Assembly (NCBI GenBank): GCA_019856515.1
Contig: CP082230.1
Location: 4,526,001 to 4,590,000, forward strand
Direction of reading: 5' to 3'
Origin: Prolixibacteraceae bacterium
GTDB lineage: Bacteria > Bacteroidota > Bacteroidia > Bacteroidales > Prolixibacteraceae
Length of the DNA: 64,000 nt
Position numbers and translations under genes: made by a program. Below, in pieces: positions 4,561 to 57,842 of the stretch; position 1 is the first letter of the stretch, and the number at the start of each line of letters is the position of its first letter. The notes under the pieces are model-generated. The model was given only the letters and a program-made list of their open reading frames with translations, searched no databases and had not been told where the DNA came from.

Positions 4561-4729
4561 CCTTCCCCTGACTTTCCCCTGCCCTTCCCCTGCAATTGTG
4601 CGAGAATAGTTCGTGAATACTTCGAGAATGGTCCATCGATTTGGGCAGAATATCGGAGAATTCTCGGACAATATTCGGATATTTTTCAAGTCATTGCATA
4701 CTAAAGGCAGGGGAAGTGCAGGGGAAAGT
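4561..4729. repeat. 11-bp-period hairpin array, copy A
   Basis: This intergenic block is built of variant 11-bp units. TTCCCCTG starts at 4563, 4574 and 4585. A TTCGNGAA-type unit starts at 4599, 4610 and 4621. TCGGA starts at 4653, 4664 and 4675. CATACTAAAGG starts at 4697, and CAGGGGAA at 4708 and 4719. The first group is the reverse complement of the last, so the ends can pair into a long hairpin. A 25-bp core at 4621-4645 is identical to one in copy B (55725-55749). It is not a coding sequence: the 11-bp period breaks any reading frame. I do not recognise the family. Confidence 0.75.
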
Positions 4730-5033
4730 AGTATGGAGGTGATGTATAAGACTAACATTGCTTCTCTGGTATAACATGGCACTTTGATGTGTCGAGGAGG
4801 TTTTCAATCGGAGTTTAACTGTATTAATGAGAAAAGATTGCCTCTTCTGATATTTATTGTTTGATTTTTTTGGAGTAAATAAGGAGTTGGAGGTATGTTT
4901 TATGAGTGGATAAAATAACTTTCCTATATATAGTAATGGTTATGGTATTTGTCTTTTGAAGTTCAATAGATGTTATGGATTGTGAAAATGTGACTTTTTG
5001 GGGATGATTTAGATAAAGAGAGTAAAATACCTA
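4730..5033. other. intergenic stretch with no recognised gene
   Basis: AT-rich sequence between repeat copy A and the promoter of the first SusC gene. I see no convincing reading frame, RNA fold or repeat in it. The stretch 4364-4560, before the repeat, also holds nothing I recognise. Confidence 0.6.
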
Positions 5034-5066
5034 TTTGTCTTTTTAAATAATTACTGCCTATCTTTG
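5034..5066 (+). promoter_or_regulatory. promoter of SusC/SusD pair 1
   Basis: TTTG at 5034-5037, a 21-bp spacer and TATCTTTG at 5059-5066 match the Bacteroidota consensus. Transcription would start near 5073, giving a leader of about 155 nt. Confidence 0.65.
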
Positions 5067-5103
5067 AGACCTGTTATACAACATTCTCTGAACTGCTACC
5101 TGT

Positions 5104-5128
5104 CTTATCAGTTGATTATTCTGATAAG
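5104..5128 (+). promoter_or_regulatory. leader hairpin of SusC 1
   Basis: A perfect 8-bp stem (CTTATCAG / CTGATAAG) with a 9-nt loop lies in the predicted leader, 100 nt before the start codon. No T tract follows, so it is not an ordinary terminator. Function is unknown. Confidence 0.4.
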
Positions 5129-5228
5129 CAAGGTGGCTTTGTTTAAGAGAGATTATTAAGATTATTAATTCATTATTCATCCAGTATTATGGAGTGTGAC
5201 TGTATCAAATTAGAAAGGTTAATATTTT

Positions 5229-8200
5229 ATGAAAAAGAGTTTATTCGCCATGACGGCTATCGTCTTGGTCAGTTTAAATATTGCGCTCGGTCAGAGACCT
5301 GCAATAACTGGCCTCGTTATCTCAAAACGTGATAACCAACCAATTCCTGGAGCAACCGTTGTTGTTTCCTCTACATCTATAGGTACTGTCACAAGCTTCG
5401 ATGGTTCCTTTCAAATTTCGCCTCCTTCTGAGGCAAAGACCTTGACTGTAAGTTATATTGGCATGAAGCCTGTTGAGGTCCAAATTACCCAAAAAGAGTT
5501 TTATAAAATTGTTCTTGAATCACATAATGTTTCTGTGGATGAGGTGGTTGTGACCGCTTTAGGTGTTTCAAGGGAGAAGAAAGCACTAGGGTATTCGGTT
5601 CAGAATATTTCTGGTAGTAATGTGGGACCTGGAGATCAAGGGAATGCGGTAGCTCAGTTGTCTGGTAAGGTAGCAGGGGTACAGATTTCAGGCTCTTCAA
5701 GTGCTATTGGTGGATCTACTCGGGTGTTAATTCGTGGTGCTAATTCGATAACAGGGGAGAACCAACCTCTATTTGTAATTGATGGTGTCCCATTGGATAA
5801 TGCCAACTATAGTGAGAGTAAAGATCGACCAGGTGGTAGTGGTATTGATTATGGAAATATGTCTCAGGATATTAATCCCGAGGATATTGAAACGATATCG
5901 GTATTGAAAGGTCCATCTGCTGCAGCCCTTTATGGCTCTAGAGCTGCCAATGGGGTGATTATGATTACGACCAAGAGAGGGGGTAAGCGTCCTGGATTGG
6001 GGGTCACTATTCGTAGTGGTGTCTCTGTGGAGAAAGTGAATCGATTACCAAAACTACAGAGTCAATATGGTGGCGGTGGTTTAAGTAGCTTTGATAAGGT
6101 GACCATCGACGGAACGCCATATGCAACGGTGGCATATCATGTGGATGAGAGTTGGGGCCCTAAGTTCGATCCGAATCAACAGGTGTTGCATTGGGATGGA
6201 TTGAATCCGCAAGATCCAGATAATTATTTGAAGACAAGGCCTTGGGTGGCTCCAGAGAATGATATTGATAAGTTCTTTGATACAGGGGTGATTTTTAATA
6301 ATACGATCTCTTTATCTGGCTCGAAAGAGGATAGTGATTTTCGTCTGTCTTTTCATAGTTTGAATGCTACCGGTTTTCTACCTAATGCCTCTTCGGATAA
6401 ATATACGGTTACTTTCAATGGTCGCTCTAAGATTAGTGAGATGATTGAGATTACGGCTGGTGGATCTTTTATCAATAATCAAGTGACAGGTCGTCCTGTG
6501 ACTGGTTATAGTTCGAACAATGTGATGCTTCAGTTGACGCAGTGGGGACAACGCCAACTGGACTATGAGAGATTGAAGAACTATAAGAATGAGGATGGGA
6601 CACATAATCCATGGAACCGTACTTCTGCCTTAAATCCTAGAGCAAAGTATATCAATAATCCATACTGGATTCGGAATGAGAATTACACAGAGGAGAGTCG
6701 AAATAGATTTATTGGTAATGCTGGTGTGACTTTGAGGCCTACCAAATCATTGAGCTCAACTTTGAAGGTGTATCATGACTCTTATGTCTTTCAGAATTCA
6801 GACCGTATGGCTGTTGGGTCACGTCATACACCAAGTTATTCGGAGACCGTTAGACAGTTTCAAGAGAATAATGTGGAGTGGATCACACAGTGGCAAAAGC
6901 AAGTTGGAGACGATTGGTCTTTAGATGCTTTGGTTGGTGGAAATATACGAAAGAATAAATTCTATCGTACTTCAGGTGAAACCCAGAGTGGATTGTTTAT
7001 TTCGGGATTGTATAATACAAAGAATTCTGTTGATCCTCCTATTGTAGATGACTATGAGAGACATCGTTTGGGCTATAGTGTGTTTGGGCGTCTGAGTGCT
7101 GGGTATAAAAGAGTTTTGTATGTAGATGTTACTGCTCGAAATGATTGGTCTTCTACTCTGCCTGTGGAGAATAGGTCTTATTTCTACCCATCGGTGAACG
7201 GAAGTTTTGTGTTCAGTTCATTGCCGTGGTTCGAATCTTCGGAGGTGCTTTCCTTTGGTAAGGTGAGAGCAGGATGGGCCAAGACAGGAAATGATACGGA
7301 TCCTTACGCTTTGTCGGAGACTTACGCTATCACTTCGCCCAACTTTTCAGGGGTAGCTCAATATAGTGTGCCTGATGTTTTGGCTAATGGCGATCTGAAA
7401 GCTGAGGTGACTTATGCCAAGGAGGTTGGTTTAGAGGCAATGTTCTTTAATAATCGATTGGGTTTTGATGCGACACTCTACTGGAATCGCACAGAGGATT
7501 TGATCACCAAGGTGGCACTTTCTGGTACTTCAGGTTATTCTCATATGTTTGATAATGCAGGGGTGATGACCAATAATGGTTTTGAGTTGGTATTGAATGC
7601 GACGCCTGTGAAGACCAATAATTTCTCTTGGGATATTACGGTCAACTATGCGAAGAATAATAACAAGTTGGTGTCGTTGAAAGAGGGTATAAATAACTAC
7701 CAGATGGGGGTTGCTCCACAGAATGTTACGGTGAATGCCTTTGTCGGATCATCGTATGGTGCAATTTTGGGAACTAACTATGTGTATGATGACCAAGGTC
7801 AACGTGTTGTTGGGATTGATGGAAGATATCTTGAGACATTAGCACCAGAGGTTATTGGTAGTGTACTTCCTGATTATAATATGGGAATACAGCAGCAGTT
7901 CCGTTATAAGAATGTCTCTCTATCTGCTTTGATTGATATTCAGAAAGGTGGAAACTATTACTCTATCTCGAATCTATTCGGTATGTCTTCGGGGTTGCTC
8001 GAAGAGACAGTATATCGCAATGGGGTTGATATTCGAGAGCATGGTTTGATTCTAGATGGTGTTTATGGCAAGTTTGATGCTGATGGGAATGTTGTACATG
8101 TGACCAAAGATAATGTGACTTCAAGTGGTGCCGTTGCCAATGACACAGAGATTACTGCTCGTCAGTATGGGAAAGATTTTCGTTATGGTCCCGATGTTCA

Positions 8201-8453
8201 AAATATATTTGATGCTTCTTATATCAAGTTGAGGGAGGTTACTTTAAGTTATCAGTTCCCAAGTCGTTTGACGGGTCCTATTCAGAATTTACGTTTCTCA
8301 ATCTATGGTAGAAACCTATATACTTGGGGGCTCGATAATACGAATATAGATCCTGAAATGGCTGTTACCTCATCAGGTAACGTGCAAGGTATTGAGGGAG
8401 GGGCCCTTCCTTCGACAGCCAATTATGGTGTGAATGTTCAGTTCAGTTTGTAA
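5229..8453 (+). CDS. SusC/RagA-family TonB-dependent outer membrane transporter 1
   Basis: A 1074-residue outer membrane transporter that would import a nutrient too large for porins, powered by TonB. A signal peptide (about residues 1-21, ending ALGQ) precedes a carboxypeptidase-regulatory-like beta-sandwich (about 26-95). The TonB-box region DEVVVTALG lies near 102-110, the plug domain ends around GVIMITTKRGG (~240), and the rest is the 22-strand barrel ending in FSL. The variant ALGVSREKKALGYS groups it with SusC 3 rather than SusC 2. It is co-transcribed with the SusD gene 21 bp downstream. No glycoside hydrolase or peptidase sits beside it, so the substrate cannot be inferred. Confidence 0.92.
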   Translation: MKKSLFAMTAIVLVSLNIALGQRPAITGLVISKRDNQPIPGATVVVSSTSIGTVTSFDGSFQISPPSEAKTLTVSYIGMKPVEVQITQKEFYKIVLESHNVSVDEVVVTALGVSREKKALGYSVQNISGSNVGPGDQGNAVAQLSGKVAGVQISGSSSAIGGSTRVLIRGANSITGENQPLFVIDGVPLDNANYSESKDRPGGSGIDYGNMSQDINPEDIETISVLKGPSAAALYGSRAANGVIMITTKRGGKRPGLGVTIRSGVSVEKVNRLPKLQSQYGGGGLSSFDKVTIDGTPYATVAYHVDESWGPKFDPNQQVLHWDGLNPQDPDNYLKTRPWVAPENDIDKFFDTGVIFNNTISLSGSKEDSDFRLSFHSLNATGFLPNASSDKYTVTFNGRSKISEMIEITAGGSFINNQVTGRPVTGYSSNNVMLQLTQWGQRQLDYERLKNYKNEDGTHNPWNRTSALNPRAKYINNPYWIRNENYTEESRNRFIGNAGVTLRPTKSLSSTLKVYHDSYVFQNSDRMAVGSRHTPSYSETVRQFQENNVEWITQWQKQVGDDWSLDALVGGNIRKNKFYRTSGETQSGLFISGLYNTKNSVDPPIVDDYERHRLGYSVFGRLSAGYKRVLYVDVTARNDWSSTLPVENRSYFYPSVNGSFVFSSLPWFESSEVLSFGKVRAGWAKTGNDTDPYALSETYAITSPNFSGVAQYSVPDVLANGDLKAEVTYAKEVGLEAMFFNNRLGFDATLYWNRTEDLITKVALSGTSGYSHMFDNAGVMTNNGFELVLNATPVKTNNFSWDITVNYAKNNNKLVSLKEGINNYQMGVAPQNVTVNAFVGSSYGAILGTNYVYDDQGQRVVGIDGRYLETLAPEVIGSVLPDYNMGIQQQFRYKNVSLSALIDIQKGGNYYSISNLFGMSSGLLEETVYRNGVDIREHGLILDGVYGKFDADGNVVHVTKDNVTSSGAVANDTEITARQYGKDFRYGPDVQNIFDASYIKLREVTLSYQFPSRLTGPIQNLRFSIYGRNLYTWGLDNTNIDPEMAVTSSGNVQGIEGGALPSTANYGVNVQFSL

Positions 8454-8474
8454 TAGAAATAAAAAGATAAAGTT

Positions 8475-10133
8475 ATGTTGAAACTAAGATTTAATAGATA
8501 TATCGTGTTGTTCCCAATCTTTTTATTTCTAATTGGATGTGGAGATCAATTGACAGAGACCAATGTTAACCCCAACGCACCTAATAGGGTGCCTGTGACT
8601 ACTTTGTTGATCAAGTCGCAGAACAGTTTGATTCATCATCTTCGAGATAAATCGTATGCAGGGCGTTCGGCTTTAGTTTGGATGCAATATTGGGCACAAA
8701 CGAACTATACAAATGAAGATCGATATGTTTTTGATGAGAATACCAACGCTTCAAGATGGTCACAGATATATCTTGATTTGATGGATCTTAAAGAGATAGA
8801 AGAGATCAATGCGGACCCACAACAACGATTGGAAGCTGCACTTTATGGTGATAGTGATAACCAAGTGGCGGTGGCAAGGATATTAAAGTCATGGGTGTTT
8901 ATGGTTCTTACCGAGAGTTATGGTCCGATACCATACTACTCTTATGGAAATAAGAGTGATGATTTTCAGGCTCTAGGAGCTCGCAACAAAGTGGTGAATC
9001 CAATATATGCGGATCCTCAGTCGGTATATTTAGATATATTGAATGAGTTGAGAGAGGCTGCGGATATGATTCATGAGGATAAAATTGCTTTCTCTTCGGG
9101 AGATAATATCTATCAAGGAGATGCCAGGAAGTGGAAGCGGTTGGCTAACTCTTTGATCTTAAGAGGAGCATTGCGTATTTCTAAGGTGTTGCCTGAGGTG
9201 GCTACGGAGGCCATACAGAAAGCTTTGGATAGTGGTGTGATGCAAAGTAATGATGATAGTGCATTTTTTACTAGTGATGCGGTTGCTGCAAATGCATCCC
9301 CTTTTTATAGAGCTTTTGCGATCGATAATAGATCAGATTTTGCTGTAGCAAAACCTTTTGTAGATCTACTAAAAGGGGTGTCTGGACCATTTGCACAAGT
9401 CGACCCAAGGTTATATTATTTTGCGGCTCCGATTGAAGCAGTTGCCTTTGCAAGTTCAGGTCCTCAGATTATTCATAAGAGTTATATCCCATCAGCAAGT
9501 GATTTGTTGGGTAGTGGTACGTATCAAGTGGATAATTATGAGGGGATGCCTTATGGTTTGGAGAGTGTGTTTACATCTCGTATTGGTATTGGAGCCACTT
9601 CATTACCCAACATGCCGATCCAAGCGACCTTTAAGAATACGATTATGGGTTACAGTGAAGTGTGCCTTATTCTATCAGAGTGGAATGGATGGGATGATGC
9701 TTATTACAAGAGAGGTGTAGCGGCTTCTTTGGATCGATGGGGTGTGACAGCTTCTAATATCAATGATTATGTTGCTCTTTTATCCCCTGCAAACGAAGAG
9801 CGTGTTCTTACCCAAAAATATATTTCATTGTATATGCAGCCATTTAACGCATGGGCTGAATATCGAAGAACAGGATATCCTAAAATATTGGTAAAACCAG
9901 GGGAGGTTTCGTTTGTGGATGAGAAAGGTGTGTTGAATGAAGAGGGTGAGACAGTGAAAGGCAAGTCCTATATATTCACATCCTTGGCACCTGATGTACA
10001 AGATGATCTTCCTCGTAGGTTACGTTATTCAAATAAAGAGAGTTTATTAAACCCTTCGGGATATAAAAAAGGGCTTGCACTTTTAAACGGTCCTGATTTA
10101 ATGAGTACCGACATATGGTGGGATATTGATTAG
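8475..10133 (+). CDS. SusD/RagB-family nutrient-binding lipoprotein 1
   Basis: A 552-residue surface lipoprotein that would cap SusC 1 and bind its cargo. The signal peptide ends in a lipobox (LIGC). An early NVNPNAPNRVP motif and TPR-like helices are typical of the SusD-like_2 branch, and the late LTQKYISLYMQPFNAWAEYRRTG region matches the conserved C-terminal part of that branch. It follows SusC 1 with a 21-bp gap and is the last gene of the operon: a 163-bp repeat begins 9 bp after its stop and a terminator follows. Confidence 0.9.
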   Translation: MLKLRFNRYIVLFPIFLFLIGCGDQLTETNVNPNAPNRVPVTTLLIKSQNSLIHHLRDKSYAGRSALVWMQYWAQTNYTNEDRYVFDENTNASRWSQIYLDLMDLKEIEEINADPQQRLEAALYGDSDNQVAVARILKSWVFMVLTESYGPIPYYSYGNKSDDFQALGARNKVVNPIYADPQSVYLDILNELREAADMIHEDKIAFSSGDNIYQGDARKWKRLANSLILRGALRISKVLPEVATEAIQKALDSGVMQSNDDSAFFTSDAVAANASPFYRAFAIDNRSDFAVAKPFVDLLKGVSGPFAQVDPRLYYFAAPIEAVAFASSGPQIIHKSYIPSASDLLGSGTYQVDNYEGMPYGLESVFTSRIGIGATSLPNMPIQATFKNTIMGYSEVCLILSEWNGWDDAYYKRGVAASLDRWGVTASNINDYVALLSPANEERVLTQKYISLYMQPFNAWAEYRRTGYPKILVKPGEVSFVDEKGVLNEEGETVKGKSYIFTSLAPDVQDDLPRRLRYSNKESLLNPSGYKKGLALLNGPDLMSTDIWWDID

Positions 10134-10142
10134 TGTCTAGTC

Positions 10143-10305
10143 ATACCAATTAAGTCATGAAGTGATCTATATGATTGTGTTCTATATCGTTTATACTTCG
10201 TTAAAAAAACTCACCGTTGGGAGAGCGATGCTTCGATTTTTATGCCTTGTCTAAACAAGATATATTCGCAAGATTCGATAGTTAATTTGATAGTTCAATA
10301 GGTAT
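10143..10305 (+). repeat. 163-bp TIR element, copy 1
   Basis: The ends ATACCAATT and AATAGGTAT are near-perfect inverted repeats. The same 163-bp length and clear similarity throughout are seen at 51800-51962 (reverse orientation) and 59592-59754. Shared internal blocks include GTTTATACTTCGTTA, CACCGTTGGGA and GCCTTGTCTAAACAA in this copy. It begins 9 bp after the SusD 1 stop codon. It is non-coding and MITE-like by architecture. Confidence 0.75.
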
Positions 10306-10327
10306 TATATAGTGGTTAATAATGATC

Positions 10328-10365
10328 AGGGGGGCTGTCTTATTCTAGATAGTCCTCCTTTTTTT
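10328..10365 (+). terminator. intrinsic terminator after SusC/SusD pair 1
   Basis: A 13-bp stem with three G-T pairs (AGGGGGGCTGTCT / AGATAGTCCTCCT) and a 6-nt loop is followed by a T tract. Confidence 0.75.
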
Positions 10366-10736
10366 GGGTTTGGTCAAAAAGATCTGTTCGTGACTTTTTT
10401 GCTATTGGTTGATGTAAATGGTGATTTGGTAGATTAAAAAATGTTTCATAATCTAAAATAATCGTGAGTAAGATTAAGTGTAGATCAATTAGAGATTTCA
10501 AAATAGTTTCAATATGAGACAAATATTAATTATGAATTATTCCTTAAATTTTTAGAACAAAGCATTAGAATCCATTGTTTTTTATCCATATTTTTCAATT
10601 GAAATAGATGAAAAACACCTAATTTTCTTATGGATATGAACTCTATAAAGAAGATAAATATGGATTAAGTAAATGTAGTATTAAGTAGTATGCTATGCAT
10701 TATTCGTGTCGTAGTATCGTTTTTATTGTAGTTAAA
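10366..10736. other. upstream region of SusC 2 without a recognised gene
   Basis: About 370 bp of very AT-rich DNA. I see no convincing coding frame and no exact TAnnTTTG plus TTTG promoter pair. It should nevertheless hold the promoter and any operator of the SusCD-phosphatase operon. Confidence 0.5.
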
Positions 10737-10790
10737 AAAGGAAGGTGCGCCAACACCTTCCTTTGATAAACAAACCTGTTATCAGCAGGT
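10737..10790 (+). promoter_or_regulatory. tandem leader hairpins of SusC 2
   Basis: A perfect 11-bp stem (AAAGGAAGGTG / CACCTTCCTTT, 6-nt loop, 10737-10764) is followed by a 5-bp stem (ACCTG / CAGGT, 7-nt loop, 10774-10790) ending 29 bp before the start codon. The first resembles a terminator with a very short T run, so attenuation or mRNA protection is possible. Confidence 0.45.
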
Positions 10791-10819
10791 CTATCATTTT
10801 GAATAAGTAATACAAAGTT

Positions 10820-13981: not shown

Positions 13982-14021
13982 GAACGACATTCTTTATTTA
14001 ATGATATTATAATTTGTTAAT

Positions 14022-15596: not shown

Positions 15597-15662
15597 ATGA
15601 ACTTTGTAAGGATAAGATCTTATCCTTACAAAGTAATTATTAGGTGTTAATATTAAAATATT

Positions 15663-18259: not shown

Positions 18260-18283
18260 ATTCTATGTAAAATTAAATGAGAG

Positions 18284-18310: not shown

Positions 18311-18331
18311 TCTTTTAAGTGTAACTTTTTT

Positions 18332-23298: not shown

Positions 23299-23305
23299 GT
23301 AAGAG

Positions 23306-44293: not shown

Positions 44294-44312
44294 TTTTATC
44301 TCTATACAAAAT

Positions 44313-44347
44313 AAAAAGGGGCAACACACTGTGTTTGCCCCTTTTTT
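44313..44347 (+). terminator. terminator of rplS
   Basis: AAAAAGGGGCAA and TTTGCCCCTTTTTT form a strong stem, with CACA/TGTG extending it past a one-base bulge, followed by a T tract. The A-rich left arm would also help stop minus-strand transcription from the hydrogenase operon. Confidence 0.88.
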
Positions 44348-44395
44348 GTAATGTTTTGCCCTGATAGAGCATCTGCACATTATCTAAAGATAATA

Positions 44396-44884: not shown

Positions 44885-44909
44885 ATTCTCTTGTTTTAGG
44901 TCGTTACTA

Positions 44910-48478: not shown

Positions 48479-48489
48479 AAACTTGTAGA

Positions 48490-48879: not shown

Positions 48880-48901
48880 AGTCGTACATTTTATTTAGTG
48901 A

Positions 48902-50133: not shown

Positions 50134-50135
50134 CT

Positions 50136-50477
50136 CTACGAATTGAGTTGTTCATATATCTGTCCAACGAGCTCGTATGTACTTAAAGAACTCGAATAGA
50201 TCGGCATCTCTCGTTTATTGGCTTCTAACAATAGATTCTCAGGAATCACTACATCATAAGGAATGACGATGGCCGCAAACTCCTTTAGTAATGCCACTGC
50301 CAAAACATTGCGGTGTGCTTGAATTGTAACAAACAACATTCCACAATCTCCTTTGGCCATTGCATGACTCATCAGATCAGTAACCATCAACGAATTCACA
50401 TCAGGATCTTCATGAAAACGTTCGTGGTCGTTCTTCAGAATCAGATTATTTCTTTCTACGATTTGGGATAACTTCAT
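50136..50477 (-). CDS. DRTGG-domain protein 1
   Basis: A 113-residue protein that is nearly all DRTGG-like domain: VNSLMVTDLMSHAMAKGDCGMLFVTI, NVLAVALLKEFAAIVIP and ANKREMPIYSSSLSTYELVGQIYE. DRTGG domains occur beside CBS domains and in phosphotransacetylases and are thought to bind a ligand. It overlaps the upstream Fe-S gene by 32 bp, which is long for an overlap; a later start would shorten a conserved-looking N-terminus. It is related in type to the protein at 52394. Confidence 0.75.
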   Translation of the reverse strand: MKLSQIVERNNLILKNDHERFHEDPDVNSLMVTDLMSHAMAKGDCGMLFVTIQAHRNVLAVALLKEFAAIVIPYDVVIPENLLLEANKREMPIYSSSLSTYELVGQIYEQLNS

Positions 50478-51771
50478 TCTTTGCTCCTTTCTTAGTACAA
50501 TCCATTTGTAAAACTTTATCTCCCCATATCTTCTCTAACTGAAGCATAGTGGTGTCAATACCAACATGGCGGTTCTTCATCCATTTTAAATCCAAAAGCA
50601 CACAATGAGCCAATCTTGCTGATCCTCTCGAAATATCTTTTGCAAGTGCCAAACAGTTCGGTGCACCACATACTCCACAATCAATGCCTGGAAGAAGACA
50701 CATTAGCTTTCGAACCCTTTCCGATCGAATTAATGCCTCTTGGAATCCCTCTTGTGGGGGCACTATTGGGGTTGAGGTAAACTCCCAAAACTCCGATAGT
50801 GATGTGATTACCCTTTGAACCTTATGGTCATGTCTCTCTTTCAGTCTAGGGGAGTGGTTGGCCTCTCTTCGACGAATAATAGATGGATATTCTGACATAT
50901 AAGAGCCATTAAAACAGCCATACTTACAGCCCTCTAAATGATAGTCGCGTCTATAATCGTCTGGCTTCAAATCATTCTTATGAACCCACTCTAACACCTC
51001 TTTAATCCCCGAAATAGATACCGAAGCCTTCTCTCTACATGAAGGAGTCATCGAAGAGGATGTATCGGGATTATCTATACCCACCTCTCGTTTCCACACC
51101 TTTTTCTGTATCTCATTAACAAGAGATACCGTAGAGACAGTCTCATCAGCAAGAAAGATATCGAGATTATGACTCCCATGATGGTAGTTCTCCGACATAC
51201 AGTGTGTCGTCATGGTGATCGATGTACGACTTCTCAAATGGTCTTCATAAAGAAGATGGATGGCACCAATAACGAGCTCCGAAACCGTTGGTACAAAACG
51301 GATATCATGTTCAGTCTCCATCTCTCCATTTTGAACCATCGTTTTGATCACATTACAGTGTGTCGAAATATCTTTCTGATCGTCATCGATATCGTTTAGC
51401 CTACTCCATAACGTTTGAAGTCTTTGATAATCACGGCAATCAATAATATGGTGATAGTCTAACTTGCGAAGAGCTTGTCTAACCTCTTCATGCTTGTCAT
51501 TAGGAAAATGGCCAAAGAAACCTTCTTGAATCACCAAGAGACGTACTTTACCTCTGTTCTCATCATTGGATTTCGGAGATACTAAGGAGATGGCATGGTA
51601 TGCACAGTCATCCAAGCATCGACCACAAAGAATACACTTTTGATGATCAATGTTGGCCACACCTCTTCTGATACGTATGGCCTCGACAGGGCAATGACGC
51701 ATACAGTGAGTACACCCATGGCATTTGGGAATAGAAACGGTGACATATTTCAGAAGCGTCTCTCTTTTCAA
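50446..51771 (-). CDS. Fe-S protein with a degenerate hydrogenase-like domain
   Basis: A 441-residue protein. Two [4Fe-4S] motifs open it (C17-C27, C46-C56). A middle region aligns in order with the hydrogenase large-subunit C-terminal domain, but the H-cluster motifs are eroded: ISTHCNV (C139), TMTTHCMSE (C191) and LEGCKYGCFNG (C282, C286). The four cysteines survive without the TSCCPAW, MPCxxKxxE and GGGQP contexts. A C-terminal Fe-S domain, LPGIDCGVCGAPNC (C365, C368, C373, C390), resembles that of RnfB. It is more likely a sensor of redox state or H2 than an enzyme. A 163-bp repeat separates it from the upstream HATPase gene. Confidence 0.8.
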   Translation of the reverse strand: MKRETLLKYVTVSIPKCHGCTHCMRHCPVEAIRIRRGVANIDHQKCILCGRCLDDCAYHAISLVSPKSNDENRGKVRLLVIQEGFFGHFPNDKHEEVRQALRKLDYHHIIDCRDYQRLQTLWSRLNDIDDDQKDISTHCNVIKTMVQNGEMETEHDIRFVPTVSELVIGAIHLLYEDHLRSRTSITMTTHCMSENYHHGSHNLDIFLADETVSTVSLVNEIQKKVWKREVGIDNPDTSSSMTPSCREKASVSISGIKEVLEWVHKNDLKPDDYRRDYHLEGCKYGCFNGSYMSEYPSIIRRREANHSPRLKERHDHKVQRVITSLSEFWEFTSTPIVPPQEGFQEALIRSERVRKLMCLLPGIDCGVCGAPNCLALAKDISRGSARLAHCVLLDLKWMKNRHVGIDTTMLQLEKIWGDKVLQMDCTKKGAKNEVIPNRRKK

Positions 51772-51799
51772 TGGATTATATCTAGTTATAGTAGTAATG

Positions 51800-51962
51800 A
51801 TACCAATTGAATAATGAAATGAGCTATAAGGCCTACGAGTATATTTTGTCTAGACAAGGCAAAAAAATGGAAGCAATACTTTCTCTAAAGTGATACCTCT
51901 TAACGAAATATAAACAGTCATAGAACGTAAGGATAAAGCCCATATCATGATTTAATTGGTAT
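51800..51962 (-). repeat. 163-bp TIR element, copy 2
   Basis: The ends are perfect inverted repeats (ATACCAATT / AATTGGTAT), and the imperfect TIR extends to about 25 bp with 21 matches. On the minus strand it aligns over its full length with the copies at 10143 and 59592. TTGTCTAGACAA forms a 12-bp palindrome inside. It begins at the stop codon of the HATPase gene at 51962 and fills almost the whole 190-bp gap in the otherwise tightly packed hydrogenase cluster. Confidence 0.8.
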
Positions 51963-52384
51963 TACGCTATCGGAACCATATGAGATAGTATAACTATAGT
52001 TCCTTCGTTCTGCTTCGTATGGATCTCCATACTATCGCTGTTTCGCTTCATATTGGGAAGTCCCATCCCTGCTCCAAACCCCATCTCTCTCACTTTGTCT
52101 GATGCTGTGGAGAAACCCTCTTGCATCGCATCCTGAATGGAAGCAATACCTGGACCTCGATCTGTAAATGTTGTTGTGATCTTCTCTTGGGTAATCTCTA
52201 GATCGACAACTCCATCATAAGCATGTGCAATGATATTGACCTCCGCTTCATAGTTCGCAATAGATAACTTACGAATAAAAGCTGGGGGTAGGTGCAAACG
52301 CTTCATGATCTTCTTTATCTCGATCGAAACAAATCCTGCATGAGAAAAGTCTCCACCTGCTACCTCAAATTGATATTTCATCAC
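51962..52384 (-). CDS. anti-sigma-factor-like ATPase
   Basis: A 140-residue GHKL ATPase of the RsbW/SpoIIAB type. N box SIANYEAEVNIIAHAY, G1 box FTDRGPGIASI and G2 box GFGAGMGLPNM are present; no kinase dimerisation domain is seen. In other systems such proteins bind and phosphorylate partner-switching regulators. No anti-anti-sigma (STAS) gene is adjacent. The stop codon TAA meets the first base of the 163-bp repeat. It lies 9 bp after the DRTGG gene. ATG codons at 52384 and 52381 are equivalent starts. Confidence 0.85.
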   Translation of the reverse strand: MMKYQFEVAGGDFSHAGFVSIEIKKIMKRLHLPPAFIRKLSIANYEAEVNIIAHAYDGVVDLEITQEKITTTFTDRGPGIASIQDAMQEGFSTASDKVREMGFGAGMGLPNMKRNSDSMEIHTKQNEGTIVILSHMVPIA

Positions 52385-52393
52385 TACTACATT

Positions 52394-52819
52394 TTAATAG
52401 ATTGCTTTCACTCCTCTGCCATATAATATGCCACAAACGCGAAACATGGTATGAGGGGAGCGGATAATCGAAATATCTAACTCCTGTGCAATCTGAATTA
52501 ACTCTTTTGGAATCGTCTTATTCCGAACGAAAATGATACAATGTATCTCTGCAATATGTGCTGTCCTGATCGTCTGCTTCGTTATAAGTCCAGTGATCAG
52601 TACCGTTTCAGTAGCATCAATAGTCAATAGATCGCTCATTAGATCACTGCAAAAACCGTAACAAAATCGGTTTGTGATCTGACTGTGATAGAGAATCTCA
52701 CCAACCTCCACTGCAAGAGAATCCACATCAAATGATCGAATTGATGATGTCATGTCGAAACTCATATTTTGTGTCTCATGTTCCTGCATATCGTAGCCAT
52801 TTAAACATTCAGAAAACAA
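52394..52819 (-). CDS. DRTGG-like domain protein 2, first gene of the hydrogenase cluster
   Basis: A 141-residue protein. After ~30 variable residues, FDVDSLAVEVGEILYHSQITNRFCYGFCSDLMSDLLT, TVLITGLITKQTIRTAHIAEIHCIIFVRNK and LAQELDISIIRSPHTMFRVCGILYG form a DRTGG-like fold. Cys residues are frequent (C5, C53, C57, C93, C128), but no cluster motif is clear. It pairs with the anti-sigma-like ATPase 9 bp downstream, and both look regulatory. A start at the internal ATG (52789) would remove the variable N-terminus. Confidence 0.65.
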   Translation of the reverse strand: MFSECLNGYDMQEHETQNMSFDMTSSIRSFDVDSLAVEVGEILYHSQITNRFCYGFCSDLMSDLLTIDATETVLITGLITKQTIRTAHIAEIHCIIFVRNKTIPKELIQIAQELDISIIRSPHTMFRVCGILYGRGVKAIY

Positions 52820-53217
52820 CTAATTCTAAATAGTAGCTGCAAAACATATGATTTATTAAAATGTTGTGCTATGCTCTAATGTATTAAATATAAGGTTTTA
52901 ATATTGCTTTTGTTCTGATATTAATCACACTTTGGACGACTCTTATTTAATTTTTATTTAGAATAAATATGAGGAGGTAAACATCTTGACATTGTTTAAT
53001 AAGATGTCAAATGTGGAAGGTGATGACGAAAAGAAATTAATATAGGTATTGGTCTTTTTAATGTATACGCCGTTGGTTTATTAATCCCGTAATTGAGGAT
53101 AGTGCGATTTTTCCCTGCGCTAAACCTATTTAACGATAGTGTGAGAGGTGTAGAGGTATGATCGATATATGGATTAAATTAGACTATAACGAAGCTCTTA
53201 TTGTAATAATATGATCT
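52820..53217. other. intergenic region upstream of the hydrogenase cluster
   Basis: Nearly 400 bp with no convincing gene. It holds an FNR-type palindrome at 52915-52928, a TATGTTTTG sequence on the minus strand (52841-52849) that may be a -7 element of the hydrogenase cluster, and an 11-bp imperfect hairpin at 52981-53014 built on TTGACAT/ATGTCAA. Confidence 0.5.
52915..52928 (-). promoter_or_regulatory. possible FNR/CRP-type operator of the hydrogenase cluster
   Basis: CTGATATTAATCAC matches the FNR consensus TTGATnnnnATCAA at 8 of 10 specified positions, with perfect TGAT/ATCA half-sites. It lies 96 bp before the first start codon and about 85 bp before a possible transcription start. Anaerobic control of a hydrogenase fits, but short palindromes arise by chance in AT-rich DNA. 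Confidence 0.35.
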
Positions 53218-54231
53218 CTAAAAGTATCCAATGAAGTCATATTTCATTGTGTCCGGAGGAATCATTATTGACCCTCTATCGTTTTTGTAATAGACTCTGG
53301 TTCCATCTTCGAATATAAATTTAAGTGTATTAACGTATTCTCCCCAATCTTTATTTTCCTTGAAGAAATCCTCAATACTGATCAACACCCAATCGGTGTC
53401 AAGATTAGAATCATACCATCGTGAAATAATCTCATCATTTTTCCTTCCAATATCCATCTTTAAGTAATGCATCTTTTCTTTTTCGTGCTCTCTTGATGGT
53501 TCTGGTGTTGGGACATAACTTTCGTATAAAGGAGGAGGGAATCCGTCTATTCTTCTACGATCGAAGTCTTCTTGTCGATAGGGATCGAAAGCTGATCCTG
53601 GAGGTAGAGGCCTATTCTTATCCATATACCATACGATCGATGAGATGTCTTTAAAACAATCAAAAGAGAAATTTATATTGGCCATTATTAATGGATGTAA
53701 AGGCCTAATAATAAGTAGCGCAAACTTTTCGTCCCTGATGAACGTAACTTCACTAAATGGCATGGTATGATTCTTCATCCATAACCACCCTGGAAAAGTA
53801 ATTGTACCATCTATACGATTAAGAATAAACTCTTTCTTTCTCAAGTAGTAACCAAGAGAACCCAAGCAAATTACGAAAATGTAGAAGTAGTAAATATAAA
53901 CACCTACTCCCATCAACTCCTTCCTCGTGAGAATCGGGGCTAAAATAAGGGATACAAATATGAATACGAATAAAGCTGCATTAAATGGTGACTTAAAATA
54001 AAGTAACGACTGATCTTTTGAGATATGCCTGCAAAGGTATTTATCATCGGCATAAAGAACTGATTTTGATTTTGGACTTACATGACCAATACTCAGAAAT
54101 TTAGGGTCAGTATAGATCTCCCTAGATAAGCTCGAAGACTCATATTCTTTTCTATATTTATGATGTGTAATGGGTCTATTCCAATGATCTTTTAACTCCA
54201 TTATAGGTAGAGTCCTTACTTTTCTTGCCAT
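53218..54231 (-). CDS. membrane protein of unknown function
   Basis: I do not recognise this 337-residue protein. A soluble N-terminus (~85 residues, rich in charged and Ser residues) precedes two adjacent transmembrane helices (FNAALFVFIFVSLILAPIL and YIYYFYIFVICLGSLGYYL, ~87-130). A beta-rich segment follows (FILNRIDGTITFPGWLWMKNHTMPFSEV), reminiscent of the pleckstrin-like parts of small bacterial membrane proteins. The C-terminal ~150 residues are soluble, with a Pro-rich, charged stretch (LPPGSAFDPYRQEDFDRRR) and FEDGTRVYYKNDRGSIMIPP. Codon use is AT-rich like its neighbours. It stands alone between the hydrogenase cluster and the IS30 element. Confidence 0.7.
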   Translation of the reverse strand: MARKVRTLPIMELKDHWNRPITHHKYRKEYESSSLSREIYTDPKFLSIGHVSPKSKSVLYADDKYLCRHISKDQSLLYFKSPFNAALFVFIFVSLILAPILTRKELMGVGVYIYYFYIFVICLGSLGYYLRKKEFILNRIDGTITFPGWLWMKNHTMPFSEVTFIRDEKFALLIIRPLHPLIMANINFSFDCFKDISSIVWYMDKNRPLPPGSAFDPYRQEDFDRRRIDGFPPPLYESYVPTPEPSREHEKEKMHYLKMDIGRKNDEIISRWYDSNLDTDWVLISIEDFFKENKDWGEYVNTLKFIFEDGTRVYYKNDRGSIMIPPDTMKYDFIGYF

Positions 54232-54358
54232 GATCTTTACTTTATCTTTTCATGAAATGATATTCCCAGCATCATCTCGAATTATTAGATTAGATATTTT
54301 TATGTTAAAATAATGCAATAATTTTATATATAAACAACAATTGTGAGAAAACGTGAAT

Positions 54359-55342
54359 TCAAGCGACAAATGCAACTTTTCTATCAAGTTTTAGCTTATT
54401 ATACATTTCAATAGGCTTATGATATCCATATCTCTTACGAGGTCTATTATTAAGCTTAGCTTGTATCCAGTCTATTTCCTTTTGTGTTAAGTTCTCAAAA
54501 GAGCTTCCTTTAGGTATATACTGTCTAATCAATCCATTTAGATTCTCATTTGCACCTCTTTCCCAAGAATGATATGGATGAGCAAAGTAGAAGTCCACCT
54601 TTAGTGATTCTGCAATATGCTTATGCTCATAGAACTCTCTTCCATTATCAGATGTAATGGTGTGTATTAGATCTTTAAAGGGGGTTAATACATCAATAGT
54701 TTGCTTTGCAAGAGCTTTGGCATTCTTTCCATTTAATAACCTTATCCAGCACAGCCCTGTAGACCTGTCGTTAATAGTGAGAATTGCCCCTTTCCGGTTC
54801 TTTCCAATAATTGTGTCTATTTCTAAGTCTCCAAAGCGTTGTTTCTCTTCCACAATTTTAGGACGCTGGTCTATACTTACGCGACCTTCCATTTTGCCCC
54901 GAAATTCGTTCTTTGCACCTCTTCTGGAGTATTTCTTATGTTTGCGTCTCAATGACTTATAAATCTCTCCACCTGCAATCTTATCCTCCCAGATATAGGT
55001 GTATATCGTTTCATGTGACACACAAGAAATCCCTTTTAATTTACTTCTGCCATTAATCTGTTCTGGACTCAAGCCTTTCTCCAAGTAATGTTTAATATAG
55101 TCTTTCATCGCTCCATCTAATACAATCTGCTTTCGCTTGTTACGATGTCTTTCTCTACATAAAGCTTCTGCATAGATCGCACAATAACATCCAGTTTCTG
55201 GATTACTATTCCTTTTTACTTCCCTACTTATTACTGACTTGTTTTTGTTGATTGCAGAGCCTATCGATTCGAAACTAGCTCCTGTTGCAAGCATCAATTC
55301 AATTAAGTATCTTTGTTTTATTACGAGTTGTCCCATTTGCAT
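54359..55342 (-). CDS. IS30-family transposase
   Basis: A 327-residue transposase. An N-terminal helix-turn-helix (LATGASFESIGSAINKNKSVISREVKRN) is followed by the LSPEQINGR second DNA-binding segment. The DDE catalytic domain has D176 (GDLEIDTIIG), D232 (TSDNGREF) and E266 (ERGANENLNG), with the D-E spacing of IS30. RQYIPKGSSF and LNNRPRKRYGYHKP complete the family signature. The protein is full-length with no frameshift. Confidence 0.94.
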   Translation of the reverse strand: MQMGQLVIKQRYLIELMLATGASFESIGSAINKNKSVISREVKRNSNPETGCYCAIYAEALCRERHRNKRKQIVLDGAMKDYIKHYLEKGLSPEQINGRSKLKGISCVSHETIYTYIWEDKIAGGEIYKSLRRKHKKYSRRGAKNEFRGKMEGRVSIDQRPKIVEEKQRFGDLEIDTIIGKNRKGAILTINDRSTGLCWIRLLNGKNAKALAKQTIDVLTPFKDLIHTITSDNGREFYEHKHIAESLKVDFYFAHPYHSWERGANENLNGLIRQYIPKGSSFENLTQKEIDWIQAKLNNRPRKRYGYHKPIEMYNKLKLDRKVAFVA

Positions 55343-55391
55343 TATTTCTTGGAGGATTTATCTGTAAATATTTGATGGACAAACTTAGTAT

Positions 55392-55413
55392 AAAGGAGGA
55401 GAAATCCTCCTTT
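55392..55413. terminator. hairpin inside the IS upstream of the transposase
   Basis: A perfect 9-bp stem (AAAGGAGGA / TCCTCCTTT) with a GAAA tetraloop and a T tract on the plus side. It lies 50 bp before the transposase start and could limit read-through into the element or hide a ribosome binding site. Confidence 0.55.
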
Positions 55414-55669
55414 TTGTTTCTTCAATATTTACACACAAATAACACTCATAGTTATAATATTGTGTTGCATTTATGATTTGAATGCAAGAAATATAATTGT
55501 GGGATGTTTATGAAGGTGTTGTAATACTGAATTTGTTTAACTGGCGTCTGCCTGTATTGTTTTGGGATACAGTGAATTGTATGGCACAGTGGTTTTGTGT
55601 GATTATTGTTGATTTCAACGATAAAATTTAGAAATAGAATTATCTAAGATAGACTTGAGAGGGGATATG

Positions 55670-55838
55670 AAGCCCCTTTCCCCTGCCTTTCCCCTGCAAT
55701 GATTCGAGAACTCTTCGGGAATGCTTCGAGAATGGTCCATCGATTTGGGTAAAATGATGGACAATTTTCGGATAATATATGGACATTTTCCATGTGAATG
55801 CAGGGGAAAAGCATACTAAAGGCAGGAGAAAGGGGCTT
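55670..55838. repeat. 11-bp-period hairpin array, copy B
   Basis: Built like copy A at 4561. TTTCCCCTG starts at 55677 and 55688. TTCGNGAA starts at 55703, 55714 and 55725. GGA recurs at 55759, 55770 and 55781. CAGGGGAA starts at 55801, CATACTAAAGG at 55812 and CAGGAGAA at 55823. The outer arms 55670-55698 and 55799-55838 (AAGCCCCTTTC / GAAAGGGGCTT) pair with a 10-nt bulge. A 25-bp core at 55725-55749 is identical to copy A. The remaining gap sequence (55487-55669 and 55839-55903) holds nothing recognised. Confidence 0.75.
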
Positions 55839-55903
55839 TGTCGTGGCTCTTGGTGGAGAGATTCTGGATGGAGGGTGGGAGTGACGAAAAGAAAAAAAGC
55901 AGA

Positions 55904-55949
55904 AAGGAGGCCGATGTTGTTTGATTAAACAACACCGTTGATGCTCCTT
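55904..55949 (-). terminator. possible terminator of the sulfatase gene (minus strand)
   Basis: An outer AAGGAG/CTCCTT pairing encloses a perfect inner 7-bp stem GTTGTTT/AAACAAC with loop GATT. On the minus strand a T-rich stretch follows. Confidence 0.5.
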
Positions 55950-56003
55950 CCTACTTGGCTTCCTAGTTAAAGTTGTCTAGGATTGTTGTTGCTTTGTTGT
56001 TTT

Positions 56004-57566
56004 TTAATAGTCTACTGCATACTTTTCGTCTAACTCTTTTTGAAGTAGAGTGGACATCTCTTTCACTACTTCAGGGTTTTCTGCATATAGATTTGTACGT
56101 TGTTCTGGATCTTTTTCGATATCGAAAAGAAGACCTTCAGTTTCGAAAGTCGTATAGTTTTTTAATTTCATATACGATTTCGGCATTTTAGATACACTTC
56201 CTGTAGAACTGTTGATGTATAACCAGTTTCCTTTGCGAAGTCCCCAATGTCCTTTTTTAGTGTTGTGGACAAGGACTTCATGAACTGGTTGATCTGTCTG
56301 TTCTCCTTTTAAGATCGGTAGAATGTTTTTACTGTCAGGAGCGGCACTCTTTGGCATGTCTATATTTGCCGCAGCAGTTACCGTTGACATAATATCTATT
56401 TGAGATATAAGTTCATTTGAAACTGCTCCTGCTTTCACATTATTAGGCCATTTCACGATAAATGGAATATGGTGTCCACCTTCCCAAACATCTCTTTTTA
56501 GACCTCTGAAATCGCCCATACTATAGTGGTCGTATTTTTCAGCGCGCTTAAATGCATATCTCTCAGGGCCGTTATCCGCACTGAATATCACGATGGTGTT
56601 TTGGTCAAATCCATTGTCTTTTAGTGCTTTCATTACTTGACCTGCAACCCAGTCAGTTTGTACCATAAAGTCACCATAGGCTCCAGCTTGAGATGTGCCA
56701 TCGAATTCGTCGTTTGGAATGATTGGTGCATGAGGTGAAGGAAGTGCAAGATAGAGGAAGAATGGTTTCTTTTTACTCTGCTTAGCAATCCACTCGGTTG
56801 ACTTGGTGCATAGGGTTGGCAATACTTTGTAAGGATCCCAATCTTTTGTTTTTGGTCCAGGACGAAATTCCCATCCTCCCTCTTTTGTTTTAAATTCTGT
56901 GTCTTTAATATTCATCATCTCCGTTGGAACTTCTACTGGTTTGTCGTTTTCAAACCATGTGTATGGAGGGAAATTGATGGTGCCATCTCCGAAGTAGTAG
57001 TCAAAACCTCGACTTGTTGGTCCTCCTGAAACGGGTTTGCTCCAATCTACATCTTTGGGCATATATGCTTTTCGTACTTTACGCCCGTGTTTTACTCTTC
57101 CTGAAGGCTCGTTATTTAAGTTCCAGTTCCACCCCATGTGCCATTTCCCAATACAGGCTGTGGCATAGCCTCCATCTTTTAGAACTTGTGGTAAGGTGAT
57201 GTCGCTATCTCGGAACATCGGTTTGTCGAATGAGTTTGAGATTCTATGCGTACGTCTCCAATGGTATTGACCTGTTAACAGTGCATAACGGCTTGGAGAG
57301 CAGATTCCTGAGGAGCTATGGGCATCGGTGAATCTAATTCCTTCTGATGCAAGTCTATCTAGGTTCTTGGTAGGAATTTTAGAATTGGGATTTTGACAGT
57401 TCAGATCGCCATACCCCATATCATCGGCGTAGATGATAACAATGTTTGGTCTATCTTGTGGTTTGTTACTTGTTGAAGAGAAGCTTTGTAGAAAAGGTAT
57501 TAGAAGTGTTGCACTGAAGAGTTTCAGGGCATGAGATGATTTTACCCTCATATCTTTCGTATTCAT
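56004..57566 (-). CDS. S1-family sulfatase (arylsulfatase-like)
   Basis: A 520-residue secreted sulfatase. A hydrophobic segment (~15-30) follows an unusually long charged start; ATG codons at residues 1 and 6 are both possible. Metal ligands D48/D49 lie in [11 protein letters not shown]. The formylglycine motif is C89-S-P-S-R93 in [15 protein letters not shown], the Cys type that needs an anaerobic maturase (anSME), which is not in the window. GKWHMGW and FSADNGPE are further active-site landmarks. It would remove sulfate from marine polysaccharide or another sulfated ester. It is an orphan, not in a polysaccharide locus, and lies between two 11-bp-period arrays and next to an IS. Confidence 0.92.
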
Positions 57567-57711
57567 AAATGGTTGTTTAATTAGTTATGTATAGTTGATT
57601 ATATCGATTGAATTTTTTAATCAAAAAGCCCAACAGAATATTTACAAAACATAAATATAATATAATTTCTATATTTTAATGTATCAAACAAGGGTTTCAC
57701 TGCCCTTTAAC

Positions 57712-57842
57712 TTACCTTTCAGTTACCCTTTCCTTACCCTTTGTTTACCTTTTAGTCGTGTGGAGGTAAACAAAGGGTAAGTTTAGGGTAACTTATCTAC
57801 GGGTTTGGTGGAGGCTTGAAGGCTGGTTGAATATTGGTTGAA
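57712..57842. repeat. 11-bp-period hairpin array, type 2
   Basis: TTACC starts at 57712, 57723, 57734 and 57745. GGTAA starts at 57765, 57776 and 57787. TTG starts at 57805, 57816, 57827 and 57838. All steps are exactly 11 bp. The arms 57721-57749 and 57765-57793 form a 29-nt hairpin (AGTTACCCT...GTTTACC) broken by one small internal loop, with a 15-nt apical loop. The sequence differs from copies A and B but the build is the same. Otherwise the gap 57567-57963 holds no gene I can support. Confidence 0.7.

What the first reader, a model, noticed from the sequence alone, without database searches (positions are those of the whole stretch)
4561..57842. Intergenic arrays of variant units with a strict 11-bp period that fold into long hairpins
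Three intergenic blocks (4561-4729, 55670-55838, 57712-57842) consist of short groups of 2-4 related units whose starts are 11 bp apart, with only one or two register slips. In each, the first group is the reverse complement of a later group, so the block can fold into a long stem. The first two share a 25-bp identical core (4621-4645 and 55725-55749); the third uses different units (TTACC, GGTAA, TTG) in the same build. Eleven bp is one turn of B-DNA (or A-form RNA) and breaks any reading frame, so a phased protein-binding array or a structured RNA is more likely than coding. I know no named family with this build.
Basis: seen in the sequence. Interest (0 to 1): 0.8.

Follow-up and report, generated by a model that had tools for sequence, protein, structure and literature searches.

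The report
Evenly spaced 11-bp phased chromosome repeats
The three blocks belong to a large, fast-changing class of short intergenic DNA elements, built from units exactly one DNA turn (11 bp) long and mirrored about a centre, which sit about one per 40,000 bases along the chromosome and look like docking arrays for an unknown DNA-binding protein rather than structured RNAs.

Summary
Lag 11 is the only lag from 5 to 30 that passes the array threshold in the window, and lag 11 and its multiples lead in non-coding DNA of about 850 kb of this genome and 400 kb of a sister species. The blocks are three of many: 24 arrays in 900 kb here, 12 in 430 kb of the sister. At least five unit vocabularies share one build: two arms of 11-bp units, mirrored around a centre.

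Three results go beyond the finding. (1) The arms do not covary: complementarity within an element is no higher than between arms swapped among elements, and lower in some outer units, so a conserved RNA hairpin is not supported. (2) Spacing is more even than chance: mean gap 34-38 kb, P 0.0004-0.0007 against random intergenic placement (0.03 for this genome at a stricter threshold). (3) In a 163-kb syntenic block the two species carry their arrays at different sites.

I favour a dispersed duplex-DNA platform for a helically phased DNA-binding protein, organising the chromosome or limited by target immunity. Binding protein and transposase are unidentified. Curvature and gyrase-like phasing were not supported.

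The parts
4561..4729 (.). Block 1, a family A element (outer units CTTTCCCCTGC, inner units TTCGAGAATGC)
   Evidence: lag-11 score 46.5; one of 7 near-full family A copies found in the genome
4561..4593 (+). Block 1 outer 5' arm, three 11-bp units (CCTTCCCCTGA, CTTTCCCCTGC, CCTTCCCCTGC)
   Evidence: read directly
4621..4645 (+). Block 1 centre, 25 bp identical to 55725-55749; its CATCGATTT word recurs in families C and E
4708..4728 (+). Block 1 outer 3' arm (GCAGGGGAAGT from 4708, GCAGGGGAAAG from 4718), inverse of the outer 5' units; the step here is 10, one register slip
55670..55839 (.). Block 2, a family A element bounded by AAGCCCCTTT (55670-55679) and AAAGGGGCTT (55829-55838); a 96% identical copy lies at G000:C1:2595720-2595888
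55725..55749 (+). Block 2 centre, same 25-mer as in block 1
57695..57842 (.). Block 3, a family B element (TTACC-type units)
57712..57749 (+). Block 3 5' arm: TTACC at 57712, 57723, 57734, 57745
   Evidence: read directly
57750..57764 (+). Block 3 15-nt centre between TTACC and GGTAA, here TTTTAGTCGTGTGGA; its inverse, or close variants (TCCACACGACAAAAA type), recurs in many other copies
57765..57791 (+). Block 3 3' arm: GGTAA at 57765, 57776, 57787
   Evidence: read directly
57816..57840 (+). Block 3 outer 3' units with TTG at 57816, 57827, 57838, 11 apart
   Evidence: read directly

Best explanation
Each block is one copy of a genus-wide class of short (about 120-400 bp) non-coding interspersed elements. 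An element has two arms of 11-bp units, inverted with respect to each other, around a short centre. It acts as double-stranded DNA: the units place base-specific contacts in a fixed helical step, so that an oligomeric DNA-binding protein can assemble on both arms and form a symmetric nucleoprotein complex, in the way that ParR assembles on the split parC array of plasmid R1. The elements are spread by copying and keep apart from one another, leaving about one per 35-40 kb. The favoured role is a repeated landmark in chromosome organisation. Shown: the build, the fixed step, the dispersal, the even spacing, the turnover of sites between two species, and the absence of arm covariation in the sets tested. 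Inferred: the binding protein, its oligomerisation and the chromosomal role.
For: Fixed 11-bp step across unrelated unit vocabularies. In this genome the free-spacing pattern TTACCN{4,8}TTACCN{4,8}TTACC gives 36 hits, the same number as the fixed 11-bp pattern; the backwards-read control of the fixed pattern gives 0 in all four genus genomes. Arms do not covary, so the duplex rather than a hairpin seems to be what is kept. Outer units that have lost the unit sequence still carry TT (5' side) or AA (3' side) at the same phase (clearest in family C, whose 14 + 14 rows are single-orientation, because most family B elements entered in both orientations). No strong gene-orientation preference: of 89 rows, 29 tandem, 19 convergent, 23 divergent, 12 inside predicted ORFs (11 of 91-149 aa, one of 312), 6 undetermined; four arrays are listed twice (background gaps of 200 bp or more in the two samples: 96 tandem, 30 convergent, 53 divergent). 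Even spacing: 24 arrays in 900 kb, CV 0.51 against 0.96, P 0.00035; 12 in 430 kb of G002, CV 0.38 against 0.94, P 0.00065 (threshold 20). In G002, 45 pattern sites have no gap under 20 kb where 8.1 are expected. Two families with unrelated units avoid each other in G002 (0 pairs under 20 kb, 4.2 expected, P 0.017). Block 1's slot in G001 holds a phased array of a different family.
Against: No binding protein was sought or tested. In this genome four gaps are under 20 kb, two of them about 2 kb, all between different families. With the stricter own threshold the evenness is weaker (P 0.029). Array sites differ between G000 and G002, which a mobile element with immunity explains as well. Two related genera show no lag-11 array in the sampled DNA (200 kb each of G032 and G029, threshold 16), so the role cannot be general in the family.
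Confidence: 0.42

Rival explanations
1. Selfish non-autonomous mobile element (MITE or foldback type) whose arms are arrays of transposase-binding sites. Target immunity over about 20-25 kb, close to saturation, produces the even spacing, with no benefit to the host.
For: Near-identical copies (96% over 169 bp, L001 and L002); inverted ends (AAGCCCCTTT...AAAGGGGCTT in block 2; an inverse pair of about 20 bp, AAAAGCTACCAACCTCGGA and its complement, at the ends of the L053 array); positions turned over between G000 and G002; own close pairs are between different families; gaps in the hand-selected G002 set run from 24.5 to 52.4 kb, as random filling with a hard exclusion zone would give (positions); in G002 a 22-bp motif resembling an insertion-sequence tip lies within about 150 bp of a listed array at 6 of its 14 sites (positions). 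One Y1_Tnp (RAYT-type) gene lies 1.3 kb from a family A copy in G000.
Against: No transposase was shown to belong to the elements. The RAYT candidate (PF01797) was not found in G003, which has 32 hits to the GTCCAT array pattern. Families with unrelated units exclude each other in G002. Target-site duplications were not examined.
Confidence: 0.33
2. A structured RNA or hairpin (terminator, riboregulator, RNase III substrate) whose stem is the conserved feature.
For: Strong folding of all three blocks against shuffles; long inverted repeats in many copies.
Against: Arm complementarity within elements equals or falls below that of arms swapped between elements: G002 family B units 3 and 4, z -2.6 and -2.8; own family B, z -2.4 and -3.0; the highest band, one of six in G003 C, has P 0.058. 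Families A, D, E and G002 C were not tested this way. No Rfam match over the blocks at gathering scores. No preference for gene 3' ends strong enough to suggest a terminator.
Confidence: 0.06
3. Strong gyrase-binding sites or otherwise intrinsically curved DNA: the 11-bp step phases bends for wrapping, as in the 130-bp E. coli gyrase motif with 10.75-bp GC periodicity.
For: Similar overall length and symmetry; a period above 10.5 bp; phased TT and AA steps. One of 16 units, ACAGGGGGTTA, has high roll amplitude (P 0.003).
Against: As a set the units are not built for bending or GC phasing: over 16 units (four of them close variants of one family B unit, two of one C unit), amplitude at period 11 is no higher than in column-permuted units (mean P 0.41 roll, 0.53 AA, 0.64 WW, 0.54 AA minus pyrimidine-purine steps, 0.57 GC), and GC content is stronger at 5.5 bp than at 11 bp in 13 of 16 (roll values recalled).
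Confidence: 0.08
4. Passive minisatellites: slippage duplicates an 11-bp unit and palindrome correction mirrors it, with no function.
For: Neighbouring units are most alike near the centre; unit copy number varies.
Against: Slippage gives no reason for one fixed period over many unrelated units (own non-coding segments at threshold 20: 19 at lag 11, but 1, 4, 0 and 0 at lags 9, 10, 12 and 13), for even spacing, or for low rather than high arm complementarity.
Confidence: 0.08

Closest known systems
BrickBuilt, the minisatellite-bearing MITE of Porphyromonas gingivalis (PMC4596501; abstract and passages seen)
   Same: Also of the Bacteroidota; intergenic only; tandem units within an element with inverted-repeat ends; predicted long stem loops; multiple copies
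   Different: BrickBuilt repeats one 23-nt unit and is found 19 times in strain ATCC 33277; here the step is 11 bp, the units differ from element to element, the arms are mirrored, and spacing is even
REP/BIME elements (PMC2817692 seen in a search listing only)
   Same: Short, abundant, interspersed, mosaic, palindromic
   Different: No 11-bp arrays are mentioned in the part of the abstract listed; the linked transposase (RAYT) was not found in G003, which has the arrays
parC of plasmid R1 with ParR (PMC5016525, passages seen; the 11-bp length of the iterons is recalled)
   Same: Tandem iterons in two blocks around a centre; one protein dimer per iteron; superhelical complex with the centre looped out
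   Different: parC is one site beside its own par operon; here there are many chromosomal sites, arms are inverted, and no ParR or ParM was sought
Gyrase motif and strong gyrase sites of E. coli (PMC6379681, passages seen)
   Same: About 130 bp, symmetric, two periodic flanks around a centre, wrapped by the protein
   Different: Gyrase flanks are defined by GC periodicity; these units show no such periodicity as a set
Drosophila Foldback and Galileo elements (Galileo seen in a search listing; Foldback structure recalled)
   Same: Long terminal inverted repeats made of short internal repeats
   Different: Eukaryotic, longer, other unit lengths; no homology claimed

Membership tests
MITE | short, non-coding, dispersed copies with terminal inverted repeats | tested here: met
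   a 96% identical copy of block 2; inverted ends in block 2 and the L053 array. Ends were read in a few elements only and differ between families.
MITE | target-site duplication and a known mobilising transposase | not tested
   Target-site duplications and empty sites in close strains were not examined; of transposases only PF01797 was searched.
REP/BIME | linked RAYT (Y1_Tnp, PF01797) | tested here: not met
   G000 has 2, G002 has 1, G003 and the 77%-complete G001 have none, yet G003 has 32 array-pattern hits. One G000 gene lies 1.3 kb from a family A copy.
REP/BIME | GTAG or CGTC tagged 20-40 bp palindromes | not tested
   tag not scanned for
BrickBuilt MITE | tandem 23-nt unit | tested here: not met
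   Step is 11 bp in the families read; lag 23 gives 0 and 1 non-coding segments in own and G002 samples at threshold 20.
Structured RNA | compensatory change between the arms | tested here: not met
   19 G002 B, 12 G003 C and 16 own B elements; none of 16 unit bands above arm-swapped controls at P < 0.05.
Structured RNA | match to a described RNA family | tested here: not met
   window matches only three tRNAs and a cobalamin riboswitch at gathering scores.
Strong gyrase site | periodic GC content in flanks (about 10.75 bp) | tested here: not met
   column-permutation test on 16 unit words, not on whole elements.
Strong gyrase site | gyrase cleavage in vivo | not testable with these tools
   needs Topo-Seq
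parC-type centromere | tandem iterons with cognate ParR and ParM genes | not tested
   Iteron build resembles it; par genes were not searched for.

The most novel reading that the evidence does not exclude
These arrays are a previously undescribed class of bacterial chromosome-spacing elements: helically phased docking arrays for one architectural protein, kept at about one per 35-40 kb although their sequences and positions are rewritten between species.
Probability: 0.28. Interest if true: 0.9.

Novelty: new variant of a known kind. Interest (0 to 1): 0.7.

Why it matters
An interspersed element that keeps its period and spacing but not its letters or its sites points to a physical or protein-imposed rule rather than conserved genes. 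If a protein reads the 11-bp step, it would be a candidate chromosome organiser in Bacteroidota. If the spacing comes from target immunity, it gives a natural case of an element that has nearly filled a genome. Either can be tested by one pull-down and one contact map.

Tried and rejected
Global lag-11 autocorrelation of intergenic DNA shows nothing in 400-kb samples; only local scans do. Block 2 DNA has no match in 60 relatives, in the phage collection or in the plasmid collection; these are DNA-similarity searches, which miss arrays with other units. The curvature and gyrase-phasing idea, which I held for a while, failed a column-permutation test. RAYT as the mobilising enzyme is unlikely because none was found in G003. 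A terminator or gene-end role is not supported by gene context, though convergent gaps are somewhat more frequent among arrays (19 of 71 classified rows) than in the background (30 of 179). Family zoning along this genome is nominally significant (P 0.003), but rests on a first list of 29 elements from three families; the fuller list is more mixed, so I do not press it. In the phylum scan TTACC triplets outside the genus come at mixed spacings in the rows listed; only part of the rows are listed. In the catalogue scan 28 stretches match; I read 24 of them and the single viral-contig match. By eye, those of Pedobacter nyackensis, P. hiemivivus and a Pedobacter MAG show mirrored arms, and most others do not. 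A 188-bp Prevotella repeat (PMC4755523, passages) was not compared. The alignment of the block 1 slot is not reliable outside the gene; the array in G001 was read from the sequence. The 99-100% identity of array plus terminator in one G000/G001 pair, while the sequence beside it runs 73-96%, could be selection or recent recombination.

Rows dropped or added before counts. I kept 11 of the 18 G002 lag-11 segments listed (score at least 25 and hairpin at least 12), a choice made after seeing them; without the weakest-hairpin one, CV is 0.40 and P 0.003; of 32 clusters listed at threshold 14, I used the 24 with a lag-11 segment of at least 20, dropped 8, and added one family A copy (4803 kb) that the detector had missed. 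One search repeats the tests with fixed thresholds and no hand selection; one of its 12 G002 arrays (80 kb) is AT-rich with a weak hairpin; the own set of 864 kb counts 14 kb twice (L059 and the window overlap), so block 1 appears twice among its 19 segments, and some arrays give two segments; 19 of 26 G002 B loci, 12 of 18 G003 C loci and 16 of 16 own B loci matched the centre pattern and were used. and the family B profile count most elements in both orientations.

Not in print, as far as searched: searched an open-access library for 11-bp intergenic palindromic repeats, MITEs and foldbacks in Bacteroidetes, and regularly spaced repeats; none of the titles and abstract openings listed describes this build. 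Subscription papers are mostly not held there.
Full report
What is there. The three blocks are real and at the stated places. Within each, related units start 11 bp apart and an early group is the inverse of a later one; blocks 1 and 2 share a 25-bp centre. As single strands they fold well below shuffled sequence (z -8.2, -7.6, -5.7). In the 64-kb window only lag 11, of lags 5-30, gives hits in a local identity scan. A second detector, run on about 850 kb of this genome and 400 kb of sister species G002, finds 19 and 7 non-coding segments at lag 11 at threshold 20 (block 1 is counted twice in the 19 because two stretches overlap). Lags 22 and 33 follow as multiples (8 and 5 in own; 3 and 1 in G002), and no other lag from 6 to 32 exceeds 4 in non-coding DNA; the 4 are at lag 10 in own. 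The global autocorrelation is flat: this is a matter of discrete arrays.

Whose genome. The window lies in a single 5.19-Mb contig, G000. The sister genome G001 has a contig of 151,963 bases with the same array at the same place as a record of that length titled Prolixibacteraceae bacterium isolate AH-541-J21, so the family is taken as Prolixibacteraceae. No tool named the genus.

How many and how varied. Block 2's family (A) has 7 near-full copies in this genome, block 1 among them, one 96% identical to block 2. Block 3's family (B, TTACC units) has 17 sites by the triplet pattern. Reading the arrays of 900 kb of this genome by eye gave further families: C (GTCCATGGTTT), D (TCACATATTGG type) and E (GAAGTTCATTC type), with outer units of yet other sequence (the letters are mine). 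Patterns of three TTACC or three GTCCAT words at 11-bp spacing occur 36 and 7 times in G000, 7 and 0 in G001 (77% complete), 37 and 34 in G002, 0 and 32 in G003; in the 57 other relatives searched they total 3 and 0. With the spacing left free (4-8 between words) G000 still has 36 hits, so its triplets all sit at 11 bp. Two other genera of the family have no lag-11 array in 200 kb each. Outside the family, Pedobacter nyackensis and P. hiemivivus carry mirrored TTACCCTT arrays of the same step.

Anatomy. Aligned on their centres, elements show a conserved core and arms whose agreement falls off outwards over about 55-100 bp on each side. In the outermost units the unit sequence is lost but TT on the 5' side and AA on the 3' side remain at the same phase. 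This is cleanest in family C of G002 and G003 (14 rows each, one orientation); the family B profiles are symmetric in part because most elements entered in both orientations. Centres differ in length: mirror positions relative to the last unit differ by 10 bp between species in both family B (14 against 24) and family C (18 against 28), counted by hand. This would suit helical phasing across the centre, but rests on two families.

Not a conserved hairpin. If pairing were what matters, the arms of one element should match each other better than they match arms of other elements. They do not: 19 G002 B, 12 G003 C and 16 own B elements show none of 16 unit bands above the swapped control at P < 0.05 (best 0.058), and bands three and four of both B sets fall below it (z -2.4 to -3.0). 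The inverted arms seem to come from a shared vocabulary used in both orientations; long perfect palindromes may even be avoided. Together with the lack of Rfam matches and of a strong gene-orientation preference, this argues for duplex DNA. Families A, D and E were not tested.

Not bent DNA as such. A column-permutation test on 16 unit words finds no enrichment, as a set, of bending or GC amplitude at period 11. This removes the main reason to call them gyrase sites, whose motif is defined by GC periodicity of 10.75 bp (PMC6379681, passages).

Spacing. In G002, 45 sites found by two exact patterns have no gap under 20 kb, against 8.1 expected. In contiguous DNA with a fixed detector threshold, 12 arrays in 430 kb of G002 have mean gap 33.7 kb and CV 0.38 (null 0.94, P 0.00065), and 24 in 900 kb of G000 have mean gap 38.4 kb and CV 0.51 (null 0.96, P 0.00035), the null being random choice among intergenic regions of at least 300 bp. 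At threshold 24 the own result (20 arrays) weakens to P 0.029, while the G002 result stays (P 0.00045). With hand selection the numbers are sharper (CV 0.24; 0.35 after merging close pairs), but they are post hoc. In G000 the four gaps under 20 kb all join different families. Grouping A, C and E, which share the CATCGATTT word in many centres, gives 15 elements with CV 0.28 and minimum gap 23.5 kb; this grouping was made after seeing the data. In G002, families B and C also avoid each other (P 0.017).

Turnover. G002:259-422 kb and own 4145-4336 kb are syntenic (88 of 92 reciprocal best hits). The five G002 arrays there have flanking genes whose own counterparts lie at least 6 kb from an own array, and the own arrays are likewise absent from their G002 slots, with one reservation: the G002 slot of the own 4284.7-kb array holds a weak lag-11 segment (score 16.0, at 383.65 kb) that could be a remnant. 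Outside this block, one G002 array (3581 kb) has flanking genes whose own counterparts lie about 4 kb from an own array. Spacing is similar in both genomes. Between G000 and the closer G001, sites are shared in three cases. In a fourth, block 1's slot, G001 has a phased array of what reads as family E at the same distance (about 270-465 bp, own 294-462) upstream of the conserved segment that carries the same TonB-receptor gene.

Mechanism. The build is that of a binding array: fixed step, specific units, two mirrored arms. The nearest mechanistic likeness is ParR on the split parC of plasmid R1, where each iteron takes one dimer and the centre loops out (PMC5016525, passages; the 11-bp iteron length is recalled). 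I infer an unknown oligomeric protein. Why the elements keep apart is open. A chromosomal role explains cross-family avoidance in G002, similar spacing after turnover, and the reused slot. Target immunity of a mobile element explains turnover, fresh copies and the close pairs of different families. I put these at 0.42 and 0.33.

Against known kinds. It resembles MITEs (BrickBuilt of Porphyromonas gingivalis is the closest found) and BIMEs in size and place, but fails the 23-nt unit of the first and the linked transposase of the second. I therefore call it a new variant of interspersed repeat, with a real chance that it is a class of its own.

Noticed in passing
G002:C1, 14 places, e.g. 108157, 545306, 624245, 960500, 1276654, 2083775; G003:C25:132771: A solo 22-bp motif CACTGTCN{2,5}AAAGTGNGTAA, resembling the tip of an insertion sequence (recalled likeness), lies within about 150 bp of a listed array at 6 of 14 G002 sites and beside one of three G003 sites. 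No inverted pair at insertion-sequence distance is among the 14, and the pattern has no hit in G000 or G001. It may mark one end of the element or a preferred neighbour.
   Followed up: partly
window 54359-55496: A 327-aa gene with an HTH_38 domain lies in a segment of about 1.1 kb with two further identical copies in the genome: an insertion sequence, probably IS30-like (recalled), next to block 2.
   Followed up: partly
L286:16197-16331 (G032) and L293:5167-5347 (G029): Two other genera of the family have non-coding arrays with a 21-bp period (two turns of B-DNA), without obvious mirrored arms in the part read.
   Followed up: no
L290:11860-12064, L291:1295-1879 (G029): Seven-bp period repeats beside what read like tRNA genes and in other intergenic regions of G029.
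   Followed up: no
L253:6998-7039 and L254:10279-10320 (G000 about 4.667 and 4.690 Mb): Short arrays with a 10-bp period (CATAATCATA type), the first near a Y1_Tnp (RAYT-type) gene at 4668281; possibly the repeat of that transposase.
   Followed up: no
L030 and L098, array region: Array and upstream terminator are 99-100% identical between G000 and G001 while the sequence to their left is 73-96% identical in 100-bp windows.
   Followed up: partly
L017 and L057 flanks: Diverged sequences of about 200-240 bp recur several times within a few kb next to an array (L017) and elsewhere (L057).
   Followed up: no
window 4056-4324: Three tRNA genes in tandem with equal scores directly upstream of block 1; the cluster is conserved in G002 and G003, but in G002 no lag-11 array follows it in the 1.5 kb read.
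   Followed up: partly
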